From Halovivax gelatinilyticus (lineage in GTDB: Archaea > Halobacteriota > Halobacteria > Halobacteriales > Natrialbaceae), in the NCBI RefSeq assembly GCF_024300625.1, contig NZ_CP101322.1, positions 2,803,992 through 2,867,991 of the forward strand: a DNA stretch of 64,000 bases, read 5' to 3'. Below are positions 5,461-15,533 of the stretch, in pieces (within the stretch, counting starts at the first letter, position 1; each line of letters starts with the position of its first letter). Made by a program: the position numbers and the translations under genes. The notes beneath the pieces are model-generated. The model ran no database searches, was not told where the DNA came from, and saw only the letters and a program-made list of their open reading frames with translations.

Positions 5461-6495
5461 CTACCCGGACTCCGTCGTCTCGGTCGGCCCGATCCGACGA
5501 AAGAGGCGATCGTACCCGTCGGCGACGTCCTCCCAGCTTACCTCTCGCGCGATCGATCGGCCGGCCGCGGCGTAGGACTGACGTTGCGTTCGGTCCGACT
5601 GGAACTCGGCCAGTACGTCGGAGATCGCCGTCGGCTCGAGTTCGACGAAGCGGAGCTCGTCGGGGTCGTACCATCGTTCGAGTTCGCCGCGTCGAGCGAC
5701 GATCGGAAGTCCGGCCGCGCCGTACTCCTTTAGCTTCAACGGCTGCTCGGCGTCTTTGAAACAGAATCCGATATCGGCGTGGTGGAGAAAGCCGGGCATC
5801 AGCTCGTACGGGAACGCTCCCGGGTACGTGACGTTCTCGCGGTCGGTCGCCGCGTCGGCGACGGTCGACTCGAGCGGGCCCTCGCCGACGAAGACGAACT
5901 CCCATTCGGGGGTAATGTCCGCCGCGTCGAGCAATTCGTGGATGCCGTAGGTCGGCGAGAGAACGCCGATGTAGATCGCGATCGGCTTTTCGAGGTCGAC
6001 GCCGTCTGATTCGAGTATCGTCTGCGACTCCGAGATCGCGTTCACGTCTGGATCGGCGAACAGGTCGAAGGTGACGGCGTTTGGAAGCTTGACGGCGTCG
6101 GTGATGCCGCGCTCAGTGGCCTCCAGCAACGACGATTCGTAGACGAACACCGTCGCATCCGCTCGTTTTAACGCCTGCCACTCGTACCACTCGAAGAATC
6201 GAAAGAGCGGACCGGGAAGCGAGTCGATGTCCGAGATCGGGTCGCTGACGTCGCCGAGAAACGGCGTCCGTCGGACGACCGAGAGCGGGTAGCCGAGGTA
6301 GAGCCCAACGCGGACGTTGCCGGCGATGACGTCGTAACCGCCGGTGAGTGCGCGTCTGATCGCCGTCAGACCGTCGCGCCCCGTCGCGTCCTGTATGTCG
6401 ATCTCGTAGCCGCGCTCTCGAAGCTCCTCCGCGATGCGCTCGCGGCGGACGCTGATGTTGTCGCCTTTCGACGGTCGGAGCCAGAGGATCTTCAT
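5461..6495 (-). CDS. Glycosyltransferase family 4 (GT-B)
   Basis: A 344-residue GT-B glycosyltransferase. The N-terminal Rossmann half (MKILWLRPSKGDN, then IAEELRERGYEIDI) is followed by a GT4-type C-terminal half with 'AIYIGVLSPTYGIHELLDA', 'FVFVGEGPLE' and the donor-binding 'KLKEYGAAGLPIVAR' segment containing the conserved Glu. It probably transfers a sugar from a nucleotide donor onto a lipid- or glycan-linked acceptor. Its closeness to the aglG-like gene and aglB (2-3 kb away) suggests a role in surface glycan assembly, but substrate cannot be read from sequence. It is divergent from the methyltransferase gene. Confidence 0.88.
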   Translation of the reverse strand: MKILWLRPSKGDNISVRRERIAEELRERGYEIDIQDATGRDGLTAIRRALTGGYDVIAGNVRVGLYLGYPLSVVRRTPFLGDVSDPISDIDSLPGPLFRFFEWYEWQALKRADATVFVYESSLLEATERGITDAVKLPNAVTFDLFADPDVNAISESQTILESDGVDLEKPIAIYIGVLSPTYGIHELLDAADITPEWEFVFVGEGPLESTVADAATDRENVTYPGAFPYELMPGFLHHADIGFCFKDAEQPLKLKEYGAAGLPIVARRGELERWYDPDELRFVELEPTAISDVLAEFQSDRTQRQSYAAAGRSIAREVSWEDVADGYDRLFRRIGPTETTESG

Positions 6496-6754: not shown

Positions 6755-7498
6755 ATGGGCGATTTCGACGCTGCCGCGTTACCACCGGCGTTTCGCCGCC
6801 ACCTCACGGACGAGGACGTGCGGACGAATTCGACGCTCCAATCGTTCGATGCGATACGACCGCAACTGACCGCGCTCGAAGAGCTCGAAATCGAGACGAT
6901 AGTCGATGTCGGCTGTAACCGTGGCGGGCTAACGCGGGCGCTTGGTGAGCACCTGGGGGCGTCGAGTGTGTACGGTATCGAACTCGACGACGGGATGCGA
7001 GACGTCGCGTCCGACCGCGGAATTGATGTTTTCGACGTGGACGTCGAAACGGATCCGTTTCCGTTTGCCGACGATTCGGTCGACCTCGTCGTCTCGTTCG
7101 GCCTGCTCGAACACCTTCGATACTACGATCACTTCTTTACGGAGACGGCTCGCATCCTCGACTCCGGCTGGTTGTGGCTCTCGACGCCTAATCTCGGTAG
7201 TTGGGTGAACCGGGTAGCCCTCCTCACTGGATTCCAGCCGCGAAACGTCGAGCTGTCTCGCGAACTCGCTGTCGGCAGTCTGCCGATTTATGACTCTGAT
7301 ACCTTTTTAAATCACGTTCACGCGCCGACGTACCGGGCGCTTCGTGAACTACTGGAGCTCTACGGATTCGATCGAGTTCACACGACGACGGTCTCTCCGT
7401 ATCAGCGGTCGATCATCGATCGGACGCTCGACCGTCTCTTTTCACTCAGAACGGGTTGGGGACGTCGAATTGCCGTATTGGCGATCCAGCGACGGTGA
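6755..7498 (+). CDS. Class I SAM-dependent methyltransferase
   Basis: A 247-residue Rossmann methyltransferase. Motif I is DVGCNRGG (51-58), followed by an acidic motif II (YGIELDD) and 'DLVVSFGLLEHLRYYDHFF', typical of Methyltransf_11/UbiE-like enzymes that act on small molecules or glycans. 'LWLSTPNLGSWVNR' is the usual post-IV strand. It lies between two glycosyltransferase genes, so methylation of a sugar in the N-glycan or another surface glycan is a reasonable inference. Haloarchaeal N-glycans are known to contain methyl-esterified hexuronic acids made by such enzymes. Confidence 0.88.
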   Translation: MGDFDAAALPPAFRRHLTDEDVRTNSTLQSFDAIRPQLTALEELEIETIVDVGCNRGGLTRALGEHLGASSVYGIELDDGMRDVASDRGIDVFDVDVETDPFPFADDSVDLVVSFGLLEHLRYYDHFFTETARILDSGWLWLSTPNLGSWVNRVALLTGFQPRNVELSRELAVGSLPIYDSDTFLNHVHAPTYRALRELLELYGFDRVHTTTVSPYQRSIIDRTLDRLFSLRTGWGRRIAVLAIQRR

Positions 7499-7706: not shown

Positions 7707-8642
7707 CTACCGCTGGACGATACGGTACGCACCTTCGAATACGTAACCGAATCCAACGACGACAGTGAAAACGTAAAGCATGAGGAGCTGACCGAGACTG
7801 GCAATTGACGGTGAGCTGGCGAGTTGCCGCAATTGAGTTGGGGTAAAGTCGACGAACAGTTGGCGAAGGTAACTGGATTCCACACTACTTCCGCCGACAG
7901 CAGTTGCCATAGTACGTTTCGAGCGGCCCTGTTCGAACGCCCGTCTGAGTAACCATCGGATCGACGTTCGGTACTCGAAGATCTTGTGTTCGACGACGGC
8001 ATCGGGTTCGTACACGACACCTTTCCCGAACTTCGCTTGTAGACGAACGCCGATCTCGGCGCCCTCAGAGTGGCTGTACGAATCCGCATCGGGGCCGAGT
8101 GCCGGATTGAACCCGCCTAGTTCGAGAAACACGTCCCTCCGAAAGGAGAGATTCGATTCGAACGTATTTCGAACCTCTTCACCCGGGTCCGCAAATCCCG
8201 GGTACGTTACGCCTACCACCCAGTCGAACGGTTTCGGTAAATACCACGGCCTGCCGGCGAGCCAGTCACCCACCATCCGGCCACCAACGGCGACGGCGTC
8301 GGTCTCCTCGTACGTGCGAACAAGCCGCTTCACCCAGTCACGCTCGGCAACCGCATCGTCGTCTATAAATGCGACCACCTCACCCGAGGCGAGCTCGGCA
8401 CCGACCGTCCGGCTGAACGAGACTCCCCGGTTCGTTTCGTTATTATGGACGATGACGTCGGAGTGGCCGCCGAAATCTGCTTCGACGCGTTCGTACGTCT
8501 CCGGACACCCGTCCACAACGATGACGACCTCAACCGTGTCGTACGTCTGGGAAAGAACGCTATCGACGCTCTCGACGAACGCATCGTAGCGATCGAGGGT
8601 GTACGTGCAGATGACGACCGAAACTTCCATTGATCCTGTCAT
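7707..8642 (-). CDS. Glycosyltransferase family 2 (AglG-like)
   Basis: A GT-A enzyme of 311 residues. The N-terminal half carries SVVICTYTLDRYDAF, then VVIVVDGCPET and the metal-binding acidic triplet in VAFIDDDAVAERDW. The C-terminus has a hydrophobic segment (LLMLYVFTVVVGFGYVF) that would anchor it in the membrane. The arrangement matches haloarchaeal AglG/AglE-type transferases that extend the dolichyl-phosphate-linked N-glycan. It is divergent from aglB across about 210 bp, a common arrangement for pathway partners. The start at 8642 fits a T-rich box near 8668; ATG 8630 (307 aa) starts exactly at the first strand and is equally possible. Confidence 0.88.
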   Translation of the reverse strand: MTGSMEVSVVICTYTLDRYDAFVESVDSVLSQTYDTVEVVIVVDGCPETYERVEADFGGHSDVIVHNNETNRGVSFSRTVGAELASGEVVAFIDDDAVAERDWVKRLVRTYEETDAVAVGGRMVGDWLAGRPWYLPKPFDWVVGVTYPGFADPGEEVRNTFESNLSFRRDVFLELGGFNPALGPDADSYSHSEGAEIGVRLQAKFGKGVVYEPDAVVEHKIFEYRTSIRWLLRRAFEQGRSKRTMATAVGGSSVESSYLRQLFVDFTPTQLRQLASSPSIASLGQLLMLYVFTVVVGFGYVFEGAYRIVQR

Positions 8643-8820
8643 GCGCCACCAGCGAGAAAAATCGTTCGTATTGGGGGAACGTTTCGGACACCGAGGGGGC
8701 AATGGTAATGCTTGACGACGATCCGGGTCCTCATCGGCGACCGATCTACCGTCGTACAGTCTGTATGCTGTAACTTTCAGGCTGACCGGCTTGTGTGAAA
8801 CTCGCATCGAAGGAGAAGGC

Positions 8821-8850: not shown

Positions 8851-11724
8851 ATGAGTGGAGAGACCGCTGAGGCGACGGCCCTCCAGGTCGACGACGTCTA
8901 CGCGTTCGTAGAACGCTACGGACACCTCGTCCTGGTTGGACTGTTGATGGTGTTCATGTTGTGGGTTCGGTTACTCAACTACGGGGTTTTCCGTCGTGAC
9001 GACGGCTCTGTCACGTTCACGGCAATCGACTCGTGGTATCACTGGCGAGCGACCGACTGGATGGTAGAAAACTATCCTCGATCGATGCCGTTCGAGGTGT
9101 ACACCGGCTTTCCGACGGGTAACTACGTCGGTCAGTTCGGCACGCTCTTCGACCACATCGTTGTCACCGTCGCGATGGTCATCGGCCTCGGCGACCCCTC
9201 CCAGAGCGACGTGCAGATGGCCGCACTCATCGTGGTTCCGATTCTCGCCGTCCTCGTCGCGATCCCGGTCTACCTGATCGCAAAGAAGGTCGCCGGTGGC
9301 AGCCGCGTCGCCGGACTCGTCGCCGTCATCTTTCTCGCCCTCTCACCGGGCGAGTTTCTCAGACGGTCGACCGCAGGTCAGTTCCAGCATCACGTCGCCG
9401 AGGTGCTGTTCATGGCGGTCGCCCTGCTCGCGATCATCGTCGCCCTTCGCGTCGCCGAACGAGAGAAGCCGATCTGGGAACTCGTCGAAGCCAGGGAGTG
9501 GGAGCCGCTAAAAGAGCCGGCCACGTACAGCGCACTCGCCGGCGTCGCACTCTGTCTCTATCTCTGGACCTGGCCACCGGCGGTCATGTTCGTCGCCATC
9601 CTCGGCGTGTTCTTCGCCGTCCACCTCTGCATCGAATTCCTTCGCGGCGTGTCGCCGGATCACGTCGCGTTCGTCGGCGTGATCAGCATGGTCGTCCCCA
9701 CGCTCTTCATGCTCGTCATGCTCGACGTCTTTACGTTTACGAGCGAGACTTCCTTCGGACTCCTCCAACCGACCGTCTCCGCGCTCGTTGCGATCGGCTG
9801 TCTCTTCATGGCCTGGCTCGCACGCGAGTGGGACGCCAGGGACATCGAACGAACGTACTATCCGGGTGCGATCGTCGGCATCGCCCTCGGGGGTCTGCTC
9901 GTCCTCTGGGTCGCCGTTCCGGATCTCTACTCGACGCTCGTCGGAAACTTCACCTCGCGAATCATGCCGATCGGACCGTCCGAGACCGGCCTGACCGTCC
10001 AGGAGGTCCAGCCGCCGGATGAGTTCGTTGCGCGCGCGACTCGGGAGTTCGGGATGGGACTGTACCTCTTCATCATCGGACTCGTCTTGCTCGTCGCCCG
10101 TCCGGTCATGGGCGAGCGATTCCGCGCCGAACACACGCTCGTCGTCGTCTGGAGTCTGTTCTTGCTCAGCATGGCGATGACGCAGGTGCGATTCTGGTAC
10201 TACTTCGTCCTCCCGATCGCGATCGTCTCCGGTTACACGATCGGCGTCGCCGTCGACCTGATCGATGTTCGACTCACCGACCGCGTCTCTGACGTCGGCG
10301 CCTACCAGGTGCTCGCGATCGTTCTCGTGCTGACGGTTCTGTTCGTCCCGTTCGCCCCGATGGTCAACGACGTCAACGCGATCAACGTCGGCGAGCAAGC
10401 CGGCCCGAGCCACGACTCGATCCTCTGGGAGGACGCTAACGAGTTCATGGCCGAGAACACGCCCGAACCCGGAAACCTCTACGGGGCCGGTCACGACGAC
10501 GAACTCGACTACTACGAACGGTATAGCTACCCGGACGATGGAAACTTCGAGTATCCCGAGGGCGCGTACGGGGTGATGTCGTGGTGGGACTACGGCCACC
10601 TGATAACCACCCAGGCCGAGCGGATTCCACACTCGAATCCGTTCCAGCAACACGCCCGTTCGTCGTCGGCCTACCTGCAGGCGCCCGACGAGGCGACGGC
10701 GAACGGCGTTCTCGACCTGATCGCGACGGGTGAGGATCCGCGCCTCGACGACACCGGTGGCCTCACCCAGGAGCCGCCGGAGTCTGTCGAAGGCGGCGAC
10801 CAGATGCCCTACGTGATGATCGATTACAAGATGGTGGGCTCGAAATTCGGTGCGATTTCACAGTGGACCGGTCCAGATCCGGAGGTCTATTCGTCTCCGA
10901 AGCCGATCGACATCGGCATCGAGGACCAAGAAGAGACGTTCGTCGCCGCCAACGACGAGTTCTACGACACCCAGGTCGCCTCGCTTTATCTCGAGGACGC
11001 CGACGGGATGGAAAATTACCGGCTGGTCCACGAGACGGACCGGTTCGCGATGGTTGCCGGCGTTGCCACCCAGCAGGGAGGCGTCCCGTTCTGGGGAACT
11101 GACCTCGGTATCGGCTGGGACGAAGCCGCCCAGCACGAGCCGGTCATCGATCAGCACCGAGACGAGGGGATGCTCTACGGCGGTGAGTACTACGAACCCC
11201 ACCTCGCGTCCGCGGTGAAGACCTTCGAGCGAGTCGAGGGGGCGACGCTCGACGGGCAATTCGACGGGATCGACGTCGAAAACGCCACGGTTGAAGCCTC
11301 ACTCGAACTCGAGACTGAACCAGGTCGAACGTTCGTCTACACTCAGCAAGCCGAGATCGCAGACGACGGTGGGTTCTCGGTGACGGTCCCGTACGCGACC
11401 GAGGAGACGCTCGGTCCTGAAGACGGATTCACCGAGTCGACCGTCACGGCGAACGGAAGCTACCAGGTCATCGTCCAGGACGGCGAGACCTTCTACTCGA
11501 GCGAAGTCGACGTGCCGGAGCCGGCCATCTACGACGGCGACGAGATCACCGTCTCCGACTTCGAGGAGATCGACTTCGACGACCTCATCGACGATGGGGC
11601 CGATAACGCGACGGACGAAAACGGTGACGCAGGCGGAGATGATGACGAGAACGGTGACGCTGACAACGGTGGCGAAAACGGGGATGGAAACGATGCGGAC
11701 GGTGCCGACACGAACGACGAGTGA
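8851..11724 (+). CDS. aglB: Oligosaccharyltransferase AglB (STT3 family)
   Basis: AglB transfers the completed glycan from dolichyl (pyro)phosphate to Asn in N-X-S/T sequons of exported proteins such as the S-layer glycoprotein. The 957-residue protein has an N-terminal half of about 13 hydrophobic helices, an early catalytic acidic residue (Asp60 in AIDSWYHWRATD), and the diagnostic WWDYG motif at 578-582. A long extracellular C-terminal domain follows. It ends in a roughly 55-residue Asp/Asn/Gly-rich tail, unusually acidic and repetitive. Just downstream, codirectional after about 90 bp, is the DUF368 gene. Confidence 0.97.
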   Translation: MSGETAEATALQVDDVYAFVERYGHLVLVGLLMVFMLWVRLLNYGVFRRDDGSVTFTAIDSWYHWRATDWMVENYPRSMPFEVYTGFPTGNYVGQFGTLFDHIVVTVAMVIGLGDPSQSDVQMAALIVVPILAVLVAIPVYLIAKKVAGGSRVAGLVAVIFLALSPGEFLRRSTAGQFQHHVAEVLFMAVALLAIIVALRVAEREKPIWELVEAREWEPLKEPATYSALAGVALCLYLWTWPPAVMFVAILGVFFAVHLCIEFLRGVSPDHVAFVGVISMVVPTLFMLVMLDVFTFTSETSFGLLQPTVSALVAIGCLFMAWLAREWDARDIERTYYPGAIVGIALGGLLVLWVAVPDLYSTLVGNFTSRIMPIGPSETGLTVQEVQPPDEFVARATREFGMGLYLFIIGLVLLVARPVMGERFRAEHTLVVVWSLFLLSMAMTQVRFWYYFVLPIAIVSGYTIGVAVDLIDVRLTDRVSDVGAYQVLAIVLVLTVLFVPFAPMVNDVNAINVGEQAGPSHDSILWEDANEFMAENTPEPGNLYGAGHDDELDYYERYSYPDDGNFEYPEGAYGVMSWWDYGHLITTQAERIPHSNPFQQHARSSSAYLQAPDEATANGVLDLIATGEDPRLDDTGGLTQEPPESVEGGDQMPYVMIDYKMVGSKFGAISQWTGPDPEVYSSPKPIDIGIEDQEETFVAANDEFYDTQVASLYLEDADGMENYRLVHETDRFAMVAGVATQQGGVPFWGTDLGIGWDEAAQHEPVIDQHRDEGMLYGGEYYEPHLASAVKTFERVEGATLDGQFDGIDVENATVEASLELETEPGRTFVYTQQAEIADDGGFSVTVPYATEETLGPEDGFTESTVTANGSYQVIVQDGETFYSSEVDVPEPAIYDGDEITVSDFEEIDFDDLIDDGADNATDENGDAGGDDDENGDADNGGENGDGNDADGADTNDE

Positions 11725-11817
11725 TCGATACCGCTGATGGACGAGTGATCGGTTCCCCGACCGACGTACGTGCAATCGAAGCGAATCCTTTTGGCCGGTC
11801 CGAGAATAGAGCCGGTA

Positions 11818-12750
11818 ATGCGCGAGGGGCTTGTCGTTTACTGCAAGGGATTTGCGATGGGTGCCGCAGACGCCGTTCCCGGGGTATCGGGTGCGACGAT
11901 CGCTCTCATCGTCGGGATTTACGATCGTATGATTCGAGCGATTACGGCGATCGACCCGCGCGAACTTCGAGAGATTTCCAGTCGAGATGGGCGAGCGGCG
12001 CTGTGGAGCGAACTTCTCGAGTGGGATCTGCCCTTTCTTCTCGCGCTCGGTCTGGGTGCCGTTTCGGCTGTCGTCGTCCTCGCGAACGCGATGGCGTACC
12101 TGACCGAGGCGCATCCGGTCCCAACGTACGCCTTCTTTACCGGGCTTATCGCCGCGAGTGCGATCGTCCTCTATAGCGAGGTCGACGTCACGACGCCAAA
12201 GCGCGTTCTGGTCGCGGCCGGTGGGATCGTTCTCGCGGCGGCCGTGACCGGCGTGACGGCGACGGGTGCCAGTCACACGCTCCCGATCGTGTTCGTCACC
12301 GGGGCGATTGCGATCTGTGCCATGGTGTTGCCGGGAATATCCGGAGCGTTTTTCCTCCTCGTTCTCGGGCAGTACGAGTACCTGACGGGCGTGCTCTCGG
12401 ACTTCACGTCGGGCGTGGCCGGTCTCTTCGACGGAAACTCGGTGGGGACGCTCGTCGAGCCAGGGACAGTTATCGCGGTATTCGGTGCCGGAGCCGTTCT
12501 CGGACTCTTCACGATGGCCCACGCGGTCCGCGTGGCGCTCGATCGCTACCACACCGCGACGATGACGTTCCTGGTGAGTTTGATGGTCGGGGCGCTCAGA
12601 CTCCCGATCGAAGAGGTGGCGGTTGCTCTCGGCGAATCGTCGACCGGGTCGCCGTCGTACGCGATTCTCGGCGGATCCGTCGGCGCGGGGATCGTGCTTC
12701 TCGCCGATCGGTACGCAATCGATCGAACGACCGTTTCGAACCCGGCCTAA
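11818..12750 (+). CDS. DUF368 membrane protein, candidate polyprenyl-phosphate (dolichyl-phosphate) translocase
   Basis: A 310-residue polytopic membrane protein with the two DUF368 hallmark half-repeats: GAADAVPGVSGATIA near the N-terminus and MVLPGISGAFFLLV in the middle, each followed by hydrophobic helices. Bacterial DUF368 proteins (PopT) have been reported to flip undecaprenyl phosphate back across the membrane for reuse. Here the gene directly follows aglB, whose reaction releases dolichyl (pyro)phosphate on the outer face. A lipid-carrier recycling role is therefore a strong inference, though untested from sequence. I preferred ATG 11818 over 11770 because the first conserved residues begin there; the upstream 16 residues are not membrane-like. 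Confidence 0.88.
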   Translation: MREGLVVYCKGFAMGAADAVPGVSGATIALIVGIYDRMIRAITAIDPRELREISSRDGRAALWSELLEWDLPFLLALGLGAVSAVVVLANAMAYLTEAHPVPTYAFFTGLIAASAIVLYSEVDVTTPKRVLVAAGGIVLAAAVTGVTATGASHTLPIVFVTGAIAICAMVLPGISGAFFLLVLGQYEYLTGVLSDFTSGVAGLFDGNSVGTLVEPGTVIAVFGAGAVLGLFTMAHAVRVALDRYHTATMTFLVSLMVGALRLPIEEVAVALGESSTGSPSYAILGGSVGAGIVLLADRYAIDRTTVSNPA

Positions 12751-13136: not shown

Positions 13137-15284
13137 TCACACTTCGGAGAGATACGTCGGCAAGCCCAGTTCCGTATTCCATCGCAACTGACCGTCGACC
13201 ACCAGCGGCGTCTCGATCCACGTCAGGTATTTTCGCAATTGCTCGACGGAGACGCTCGTCTTTACGTCGTGCATTGGAAGCAGGTATATTTCGTCGATCG
13301 TCTTGACGTTCGGAGAGGTCACGGAGCCGATCTGAAACTCCTTTGCGGGATACGTTCGAAAGCTGAGGACGGGATCGTCGGTCGGCTCGACGGAGACGAT
13401 CGTCGGCGCCCCGCCGTCGGATTGTGCGATGTCGGTCGATCCATCGCCGACGATCAGGTACTGTTCGCCGAGGACGGTCCACTCGCTTATAATTTCCAGG
13501 GCACCGCGGAGCGGGAATCCGAGGTTGAGTAACTTCGCGAGCGACGCCCCGGAGTCGACGGCGTGTTCGTTGATGATGTCTCCGAGCGTCGCGACGCCCC
13601 CGAACGCACCCCGCTGGGCGAGCGCGAGCCCCTGCTCGTAGGAGTGACAGGCGTTCAGGAAGAAGACGCCGAGGTCGACCGACTCGAGCGTTCGGACGTC
13701 GAGATCGCCGTCTGAACACTCGAGTCCCGCGTCCGTCGCGTGCCCGATGTAGTGGAGAAAGTCGTATCCGCCGTCGGAAAGTAGTGTCGCGAGCTCGTCC
13801 GTCGAGACGCCGAATCGTGAGGTGACGTCGAACGGGAGCAGTTCCCTGGAACCGTAGGTTTCGTCCAGCAGGTCGTGTTCGTCTAGCATCCGGGCGTCGT
13901 TGCAGACGACGAGGATGTCGATGTGCTGGGTGCGCGATTTTCTATCGAGTTGATTTCGATAGCCTTCGATCGTCGCTTTCGAGGCGCCCTGAGGTGCAAG
14001 CTCGCCGAACCAGGCGTGTTCGATCGACTCGTCGGTTACGTCCGGTTCGACGACGGGAAACGTCGATTCCGAATCGATTCCATCGGTCGTCGGACGCCGG
14101 GTCGTTCTAGCCGATCGAACCAGCGTCGCGTGTTCTCGCTTCCGGTGAGCGTCTGTGTCCGACAGTGCCGTTGGCGTTCTCGTCGTTGCAGCCGAAGCGA
14201 CCTCGGTATCGATCGAGTGTTTGGTTCCGCTCGACGGCCGGACGATCCCCAGTTCGTTTACGACGAACGGGAGGACCTCGATCGCGCTCGGCTCGTCCGG
14301 GACGTGAGCCGTCAACGGCCAGCGAGGGACGTGCGGCTCGATGAGTTCGTACGGCACCTCGAGATAGGCCTCGAGTCGCGTGGAGAGCGATTCGTCGTAC
14401 AACGCTTCGAGATCCCAGGGAAGGTGCGGCTCCACCTGTTTGCGCTCGTAGAGGTCGTACCGGTAGACGCCCTCGGTACGAACCAGACAATCGAGGAAGA
14501 AGACGTGTTTGAGAACGCGCGCGACGTCGTCGGCGAACGGATTCTCATCGCGGAGTGGAATCGACGTCGACTCGGTGTGGATTGCGGGGGTATCTCCCTC
14601 GACGAGCGGGGCACTGAGGTAAAACGAGAGCGGGGCGACCGAATACAGTTGAGACAGTTGCGGAGACACTTCGATACTAACGCCGGTATCGAGGGGCGCT
14701 GATTCCGTTCGCACGTCGAGTTCGTCGCCGCGCTCGATGAGCGGCGGGTGGCCCCGAAGCGTCGGCCACGAACGCTCTGGCGTGTCCGTCTTCATCGCCG
14801 ACGCCATCGCCGAGATGGCCCGCATCATCGACGCCGGATCGTCGGGGGTCGTGATGGATCCGGCCGGGTGTTTGTGTAGTGACCGGGCGCCGATTTCGAC
14901 TTCGACCGGCTCGTCGAAGGTGAGCTGGATCGTGTTGAGTCCGACTTCGACGGTTCCCGGTGAATCCACTCGACAGTACAACTTCATCGGTCCGTCCAAC
15001 CCGACGAACTGAACGTCGTCGTCGAGGACGTACTCGGTTCCGTCAGTGAGTTTCGCGACGGACTGGCCGCTCGCCGCGTGAACGTTCACGAGGTACCGGT
15101 GGTCGAAGACGATAGACGCGGTCTCGATCCGGTAGGAAGTGTCTACGGGAAAACAAAAGAGGTCTGTCGGTACCTCGACGGGCGTGACGGGGCGGTCCGT
15201 TCTCAGCGAGAGCTGACGCTGTTCGTTCGAATCGAACAGTTTCAGCCCGTGGGGGTCCGTGTCGGCAGTTATCTCGATCGCCAT
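13137..15284 (-). CDS. CHAT-domain (caspase-like) protease
   Basis: The last third of this 715-residue protein is a CHAT domain of the clan CD cysteine peptidases. The predicted dyad is His515 in 'HYIGHATDAGL' and Cys546 in 'FFLNACHSY', followed by 'GVATLGDIINEHAV' and 'YLIVGDG'. The first roughly 430 residues are beta-rich and acidic with no domain I recognise; a Ser/Thr-rich linker (about 370-430) joins them to the protease. CHAT proteases act in bacterial programmed-death and CRISPR-linked responses and in separases, but many haloarchaeal copies are uncharacterised. The start at 15284 precedes a natural strand; a TATA-like GGCATATAC lies about 45 bp upstream. No adaptor or pore gene is adjacent apart from the mini-protein. 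Confidence 0.85.
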   Translation of the reverse strand: MAIEITADTDPHGLKLFDSNEQRQLSLRTDRPVTPVEVPTDLFCFPVDTSYRIETASIVFDHRYLVNVHAASGQSVAKLTDGTEYVLDDDVQFVGLDGPMKLYCRVDSPGTVEVGLNTIQLTFDEPVEVEIGARSLHKHPAGSITTPDDPASMMRAISAMASAMKTDTPERSWPTLRGHPPLIERGDELDVRTESAPLDTGVSIEVSPQLSQLYSVAPLSFYLSAPLVEGDTPAIHTESTSIPLRDENPFADDVARVLKHVFFLDCLVRTEGVYRYDLYERKQVEPHLPWDLEALYDESLSTRLEAYLEVPYELIEPHVPRWPLTAHVPDEPSAIEVLPFVVNELGIVRPSSGTKHSIDTEVASAATTRTPTALSDTDAHRKREHATLVRSARTTRRPTTDGIDSESTFPVVEPDVTDESIEHAWFGELAPQGASKATIEGYRNQLDRKSRTQHIDILVVCNDARMLDEHDLLDETYGSRELLPFDVTSRFGVSTDELATLLSDGGYDFLHYIGHATDAGLECSDGDLDVRTLESVDLGVFFLNACHSYEQGLALAQRGAFGGVATLGDIINEHAVDSGASLAKLLNLGFPLRGALEIISEWTVLGEQYLIVGDGSTDIAQSDGGAPTIVSVEPTDDPVLSFRTYPAKEFQIGSVTSPNVKTIDEIYLLPMHDVKTSVSVEQLRKYLTWIETPLVVDGQLRWNTELGLPTYLSEV

Positions 15285-15533
15285 TCGTCGCTGTTGGATC
15301 GATACCGCCGCACAGACAAAAAACCAACTGGTATATGCCTGCCCCAATCACCAATTCTAACTCGATGGAGGGGCATACGATTCGCAATCAATTCGATATC
15401 GTTGTACCCGGAACCTGGGTGATGGAAGTCGCCGTCCGATGTCGACGTGGCGGTAGCTGTCGATCGACTCTGTTTGCGTACAAACCGTCACCATCGCGTG
15501 CGTACCGATCGAGCGGGGAACCGACACGGTAGG

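What the first reader, a model, noticed from the sequence alone, without database searches (positions are those of the whole stretch)
8851..12750. aglB directly followed by a DUF368 gene: candidate archaeal dolichyl-phosphate recycling flippase
Seen: the oligosaccharyltransferase gene is followed, codirectionally after about 90 bp, by a DUF368 protein with the family's two PGVSG/PGISG half-repeats. Established: bacterial DUF368 (PopT) proteins were reported to return undecaprenyl phosphate to the cytoplasmic face. AglB leaves dolichyl (pyro)phosphate on the outside, and the archaeal recycling enzyme is, to my knowledge, not identified. Inference: this DUF368 protein is that flippase.
Basis: partly seen in the sequence, partly recalled or inferred. 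Interest (0 to 1): 0.65.

Follow-up and report, generated by a model that had tools for sequence, protein, structure and literature searches.

The report
Archaeal lipid-carrier recycler beside glycosylation enzyme
In this salt-loving archaeon, and in most of its relatives, the gene for the enzyme that puts sugars on surface proteins is followed by a gene for a membrane protein of the PopT (DUF368) family, which most likely returns the used lipid sugar-carrier (dolichyl phosphate) to the inside of the cell; the pairing is real and conserved, but the job in archaea is still unproven.

Summary
aglB (8851-11724, +) is followed after 93 bp by a DUF368/PF04018 gene (ATG 11818-12750, +; E 1.9e-65), with two PGVSG/PGISG half-repeats. 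The adjacency is conserved: DUF368 lies downstream of aglB on the same strand in 80 of 116 haloarchaeal genomes, 31 of 45 genera and 8 of 9 families (about 0.06 genomes expected by chance). In 25 of 41 linked loci a possible DUF368 start codon overlaps or nearly abuts the aglB stop. In the window's own family the gap is longer and carries a conserved promoter-like box, so there DUF368 is probably a separate leaderless transcript. In Haloferax volcanii, aglB is HVO_RS12050 and the DUF368 gene is HVO_RS12060; that DUF368 protein was already reported to partly complement a V. cholerae undecaprenyl-phosphate translocase mutant (PMC9876793). Best reading: a PopT-type translocase returning dolichyl phosphate after AglB. 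I found the aglB link in no paper I could search. 'The archaeal' recycler is too broad: most related non-haloarchaeal genomes lack DUF368, linkage has been lost several times, and DedA-type candidates coexist. Direction, substrate and in vivo role remain untested.

The parts
8851..11724 (+). aglB, archaeal oligosaccharyltransferase (STT3 / AglB core / AglB_L1); WWDYG motif at 10582-10596
   Evidence: Pfam hits; translation; tblastn to named haloarchaea
11725..11817 (+). 93-bp intergenic stretch; CTTTTGG promoter-like (BRE/TATA-type) box at about 11783-11794, TTTT at -29 from the ATG, suggesting a leaderless transcript of the DUF368 gene
   Evidence: GAA..CTTTT-like box at -29 to -31 in 8 of 8 copies of the window's family, including one copy not linked to aglB; promoter function itself is inference
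11818..12750 (+). DUF368 / PopT-family (PF04018, 'undecaprenyl phosphate translocase-like') membrane protein, 310 aa; candidate dolichyl-phosphate translocase
   Evidence: PF04018 E 1.9e-65; AF2 model pLDDT 89.4, pTM 0.82; invariant residues shared with bacterial family members
11878..11892 (+). PGVSG motif, first half-repeat (residues 21-25), in a break between helices 2-18 and 25-32
12331..12345 (+). PGISG motif, second half-repeat (residues 172-176), in a break between helices 155-170 and 176-182
7707..8807 (-). GT2 glycosyltransferase, divergent from aglB; GT2 proteins are the next most frequent neighbours of aglB
5461..6495 (-). GT1-type glycosyltransferase, part of the local glycosylation neighbourhood
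6755..7498 (+). SAM-dependent methyltransferase, possible glycan-modifying enzyme
   Evidence: role is inference

Best explanation
The DUF368 protein is a PopT-type polyprenyl-phosphate translocase working with AglB. Cytoplasmic glycosyltransferases build a glycan on dolichyl phosphate, the charged lipid is exported, and AglB transfers the glycan to S-layer and other proteins, leaving dolichyl phosphate on the outer leaflet. DUF368, an internally duplicated membrane protein with two PG(V/I)SG motifs in predicted re-entrant hairpins, returns that lipid phosphate to the inner leaflet for another round. Shown here: gene identity, conserved linkage, near-abutting or overlapping start and stop codons in many genera, motifs, and a confident predicted fold. 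From the literature: the H. volcanii copy partly rescues a bacterial translocase mutant. Inferred: dolichyl phosphate as substrate, inward direction, and in vivo coupling to AglB.
For: Single PF04018 copy next to aglB. Linkage in 80/116 genomes, 31/45 genera, 8/9 families, always downstream and codirectional; expected about 0.06 genomes. Linkage occurs in every sampled haloarchaeal family with DUF368, including the earliest-branching lineages of the DUF368 tree, so it is probably ancestral, with about 5 changes of state. In 25 of 41 linked loci an in-frame start codon lies between -5 and +10 nt of the aglB stop. DUF368 is the most frequent aglB-neighbour family in the fetched loci (a set enriched for linked ones); the flanks beyond it are poorly conserved. 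H. volcanii: aglB = HVO_RS12050 (PMC7749143, PMC5131992), DUF368 = HVO_RS12060, which at least partly rescued the alkaline growth defect of a V. cholerae vca0040 mutant (PMC9876793). Order aglB-[UDP-glucose dehydrogenase, aglM-like]-DUF368 seen in G014, G078 and G113. Bacterial and archaeal members share the invariant PGxSG, G and Y positions; confident model with helices broken at both motifs and homologous halves. General knowledge: haloarchaea lack peptidoglycan, so N-glycosylation is the main known user of a polyprenyl-phosphate carrier.
Against: No assay of dolichyl phosphate transport exists in what I could read. 35 of 115 DUF368-bearing haloarchaeal genomes have no linked copy, and one haloarchaeon (G021, 120 contigs) has AglB without detected DUF368. 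Most sampled archaea of the phylum outside Halobacteria lack it, and none of the 21 that have it shows direct adjacency to STT3. DedA/VTT proteins, the other known C55-P translocase family, are in the same genome (2 copies). In the window's family the promoter-like box suggests independent transcription.
Confidence: 0.7

Rival explanations
1. DUF368 is the outward flippase that delivers glycan-charged dolichyl phosphate to AglB, rather than the one that returns the empty carrier.
For: Linkage to aglB fits either direction. Proposed exporters in H. volcanii cover only DolP-mannose (AglR) and the low-salt glycan (Agl15) (PMC3871713), leaving the exporter of the main glycan unassigned in what I read.
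Against: The bacterial family is linked to bare C55-P recycling and the H. volcanii copy partly replaces it in V. cholerae (PMC9876793). The protein is small (310 aa) and conserved across bacteria and archaea with unrelated glycans, whereas N-glycans vary by species.
Confidence: 0.12
2. DedA-family proteins are the main dolichyl-phosphate recyclers; DUF368 is a conditional, partly redundant helper, for example at high pH or high sodium.
For: Two DedA/VTT proteins in this genome and at least one in every archaeon tested, including those without DUF368. The V. cholerae DUF368 is needed only in alkaline conditions, and its authors suggest a high-salt role (PMC9876793).
Against: Near-universal presence in Halobacteria (115/116) and conserved aglB linkage point to a regular role in glycosylation there. 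Compatible with the best explanation as shared labour.
Confidence: 0.12
3. The neighbourhood is passive: an old operon arrangement kept by inertia or co-transfer, with no functional tie to AglB.
For: Linkage has been lost several times, a likely own promoter in the window's family, and aglB is reported to be transferred laterally (PMC5867893).
Against: Retained across 8 families while other neighbours turn over; tight or overlapping start/stop codons in many lineages; order kept even where an aglM-like gene is inserted.
Confidence: 0.06

Closest known systems
PopT / DUF368 family (PF04018), V. cholerae VCA0040, S. aureus SAOUHSC_00846
   Same: Full-length homology (33-44% identity to bacterial members of alignment A2), same invariant PGxSG half-repeats, same Pfam family
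   Different: Host has no peptidoglycan (general knowledge); expected carrier is dolichyl phosphate, not undecaprenyl phosphate; gene linked to aglB
H. volcanii DUF368 protein HVO_RS12060
   Same: Haloarchaeal PF04018 protein near aglB (two locus tags away); partly complements a V. cholerae mutant (PMC9876793)
   Different: An aglM gene probably lies between (inferred from related genomes); its role in H. volcanii itself was not reported in what I read
DedA / UptA family (PF09335)
   Same: The other known family of bacterial C55-P translocases; also present in this genome
   Different: A different Pfam family; not next to aglB; widespread in archaea that lack DUF368
AglR / Agl15 (H. volcanii)
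   Same: Proposed flippases of the same kind of N-glycosylation pathway (PMC3871713)
   Different: Proposed to move glycan-charged DolP outward; not described as DUF368 proteins

Membership tests
PopT / DUF368 (PF04018) | Match to the curated Pfam model over its cut-off | tested here: met
   221 bits against a cut-off of 26, profile positions 1-230 of 246
PopT / DUF368 (PF04018) | Internal duplication with PGVSG/PGISG-type motifs | tested here: met
   Motifs invariant in P, G, S, G positions of 41 sequences; half 1 against half 2 E 1.7e-13
PopT / DUF368 (PF04018) | Polytopic membrane protein with helices broken (re-entrant) at the motifs | tested here: met
   AF2 model pLDDT 89.4, helices broken at residues 19-24 and 171-175; predicted, not solved
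PopT / DUF368 (PF04018) | Polyprenyl-phosphate translocation | not testable with these tools
   Only the H. volcanii homologue has indirect support (complementation, PMC9876793)
PopT / DUF368 (PF04018) | Relationship to a solved structure of the family | tested here: inconclusive
   No sequence match in the PDB; no significant Foldseek match; VIA Z 5-6 to FNT channels and aquaporins is weak
AglB oligosaccharyltransferase | STT3 membrane domain, AglB core, WWDYG motif | tested here: met
   Pfam PF02516, PF22627, PF18079; WWDYG at 10582-10596
AglB-DUF368 conserved gene pair | Codirectional adjacency retained across genera | tested here: met
   80/116 genomes, 31/45 genera, 8/9 families
AglB-DUF368 conserved gene pair | Co-transcription in the window's organism | not testable with these tools
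   A promoter-like box before DUF368 argues for a separate transcript at least in part; no RNA data

The most novel reading that the evidence does not exclude
Haloarchaea carry an ancestral AglB-DUF368 module in which the oligosaccharyltransferase and a dedicated dolichyl-phosphate return translocase are made together, possibly as a complex that passes the spent carrier directly from AglB to the translocase. To my knowledge this would be the first dedicated carrier-return step assigned to an archaeal N-glycosylation pathway.
Probability: 0.3. Interest if true: 0.85.

Novelty: new member of a known kind. Interest (0 to 1): 0.6.

Why it matters
How the spent lipid carrier of N-glycosylation gets back across the membrane is, to my knowledge, little resolved in Archaea. 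A gene pair kept across nearly all sampled haloarchaeal families, one member of which already works in a bacterial carrier-recycling mutant, gives a direct, named target (HVO_RS12060, beside aglB in H. volcanii) for a genetically tractable test of that step. It also ties the bacterial PopT family to a process without peptidoglycan, suggesting that the family acts on polyprenyl phosphates in general.

Tried and rejected
Universal archaeal role: rejected, since DUF368 is patchy outside Halobacteria and not adjacent to STT3 there; in the one family with both genes 13-14 kb apart (f28), the stretch between, read in one genome (L111), also holds unrelated genes such as a chaperonin and TiaS. aglB-DUF368 gene fusion: none seen among the open frames in 116 genomes. 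Remnants of DUF368 beside aglB in 19 unlinked loci: none found. Shared neighbour of the unlinked copies: no common partner; only small clades share neighbours, some with a GT2-like ORF nearby. Solved-structure relatives: none by sequence or by Foldseek at E <= 0.001. The weak FNT/aquaporin resemblance (Z up to 6.0) is not claimed as kinship. The concurrent PopT paper (doi 10.1038/s41586-022-05587-z) is not in the held library, so I could not check whether it discusses archaea. Papers holding both 'DUF368' and 'aglB': none in the library, which does not cover most subscription journals.

Full report
Observation. The window lies in a haloarchaeal genome of 3.70 Mb on one contig. aglB runs from ATG 8851 to 11724 on the + strand and matches STT3, AglB core and AglB_L1; it carries WWDYG. 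A PF04018 (DUF368) gene runs from ATG 11818 to 12750 on the same strand, E 1.9e-65, 93 bp downstream. It is the only PF04018 copy in the genome. The two PGxSG half-repeats are real: comparing the profile of residues 1-130 with that of 145-265 gives E 1.7e-13.

Is the adjacency more than chance? I searched the same 116 haloarchaeal genomes for PF04018 (115 positive) and for the AglB core (116 positive) and compared positions. DUF368 lies downstream of aglB on the same strand, within 3.5 kb of the AglB core domain, in 80 genomes, 31 of 45 genera and 8 of 9 families; no genome shows it close by in another orientation. Chance would give about 0.06 of 116 genomes (genomes are not independent, so the binomial P printed there should not be quoted as such). 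In 76 genomes the genes are direct neighbours by distance; in four there is an insertion. In three of those the insert is an aglM-like UDP-glucose dehydrogenase (identified by eye from its sequence), a glycosylation gene in H. volcanii; in the fourth (G043) it is unrelated. Named genera with the pair include Halostagnicola, Natrinema, Haladaptatus, Haloglomus, Halorubrum, Halorhabdus and Halolamina.

Form of the junction. In 25 of 41 linked loci, an in-frame start codon for DUF368 lies between 5 nt before and 10 nt after the end of the aglB stop codon, often overlapping it (taATG, tgATG). That is the arrangement of co-transcribed, probably translationally coupled genes (inference). The window's own family is different: gaps of about 60-95 bp (2.5 kb in G043) and, in all 8 copies examined (including one copy 124 kb away from aglB), a GAA..CTTTT-like box 29-31 nt upstream of the ATG. 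This fits a haloarchaeal leaderless promoter, by general knowledge of such promoters; it was not tested. In this organism DUF368 is therefore probably transcribed at least partly on its own.

History. A tree of 82 archaeal DUF368 proteins places linked copies in every sampled haloarchaeal family with the gene, including the deepest branches; the label needs 5 changes. The simplest reading is an ancestral linkage with several losses, though such counts cannot prove direction. Many unlinked copies in the window's family and in f3 fall inside the f4 group, consistent with displacement by a transferred copy; four sampled genomes of genus g2 carry both kinds. The bootstrap had not fully settled and some long branches are unsure.

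Beyond Halobacteria. In 148 genomes of the phylum, PF04018 is found in 44, of which 21 are not haloarchaea. All 21 have STT3, none adjacent; three genera of one family have the two 13-14 kb apart, but the stretch read in one of them holds a chaperonin, TiaS and a histidine kinase besides sugar genes. The linkage is thus a haloarchaeal trait as far as sampled.

What it is. The protein is a full-length member of the PopT/DUF368 family, 33-44% identical to bacterial members, sharing invariant residues G11, M14, P21, G22, S24, G25, T27, A29, G33, P172, G173, S175, G176, Y186 and others. The AlphaFold2 model is confident (pLDDT 89.4, pTM 0.82) and shows helices broken at both PGxSG motifs, as expected for re-entrant hairpins. 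No solved relative was found; faint resemblance to formate channels and aquaporins (Z up to 6.0), which are also duplicated folds with half-helices, is not evidence of kinship.

What it does. In bacteria DUF368 proteins are implicated in recycling of undecaprenyl phosphate (PMC9876793). That paper also expressed an archaeal homologue, HVO_RS12060 of H. volcanii, and found at least partial rescue of the V. cholerae mutant's alkaline growth defect, and remarked that the findings may bear on dolichol phosphate translocation. Two other papers give aglB of H. volcanii as HVO_RS12050, and one of them gives aglG, aglI and aglF as RS12045, RS12040 and RS12035. The tested DUF368 gene is therefore two locus tags beyond aglB (tags step by five), and the aglB-aglM-DUF368 order seen in G014, G078 and G113, together with the statement that the H. 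volcanii cluster extends to aglM (PMC5867893), is the likely arrangement there (inference; I could not read that genome). The protein with translocase-like activity in a bacterium thus belongs to the aglB neighbourhood. In H. volcanii N-glycans are built on dolichol phosphate (PMC3871713), so AglB should leave the monophosphate outside, and no separate pyrophosphatase step would be needed before return (inference). I conclude that the most likely role is return of dolichyl phosphate to the inner leaflet (0.70). The main rivals are outward transport of charged carrier (0.12) and a secondary role beside DedA proteins (0.12); the genome has two DedA/VTT proteins.

Known or new. The family is known, an archaeal member has been tested in a bacterium, and the general idea was voiced in 2022. 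What appears new, within the open literature I could search, is the conserved and often tightly coupled aglB-DUF368 pair and the recognition that the tested H. volcanii gene sits in that neighbourhood. I therefore file it as a new member of a known kind, with an unproven but well-supported pathway role.

Noticed in passing
L046:7025-8383, L051:7726-9018, L050 between 7053 and 9162: An aglM-like UDP-glucose dehydrogenase ORF lies between aglB and DUF368 in G014, G078 and G113 (opposite strand in G078 and G113); in G078 a sugar nucleotidyltransferase-like ORF is also there (by eye).
   Followed up: partly
L031:7376-9853: In G043 (same genus as the window) the 2.5 kb between aglB and DUF368 holds a cysteine-rich halocin-like small ORF with a twin-arginine-like start and an ORF resembling an isoprenoid-synthase-type protein (names by eye, not searched).
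   Followed up: no
H4: PV200784.1, 42269-42784: A Staphylococcus aureus phage record carries an annotated DUF368 domain protein; unannotated fecal phage contigs also match. Could be host DNA in phage records.
   Followed up: no
G074:C1:2722822-2722971 and G090:C25:154401-154529: Short second PF04018 fragments about 1-1.5 kb beyond the intact DUF368 gene in two genomes of genus g31, possibly a decayed tandem duplicate.
   Followed up: no
G021 (locus L108): A haloarchaeon of family f5 has AglB and two DedA proteins but no detected DUF368; the assembly is in 120 contigs, so absence is not certain.
   Followed up: partly
window 13137-15347, - strand: 736-aa protein without a Pfam match (E <= 0.001); relatives found near aglB in 11 of the fetched loci.
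   Followed up: no
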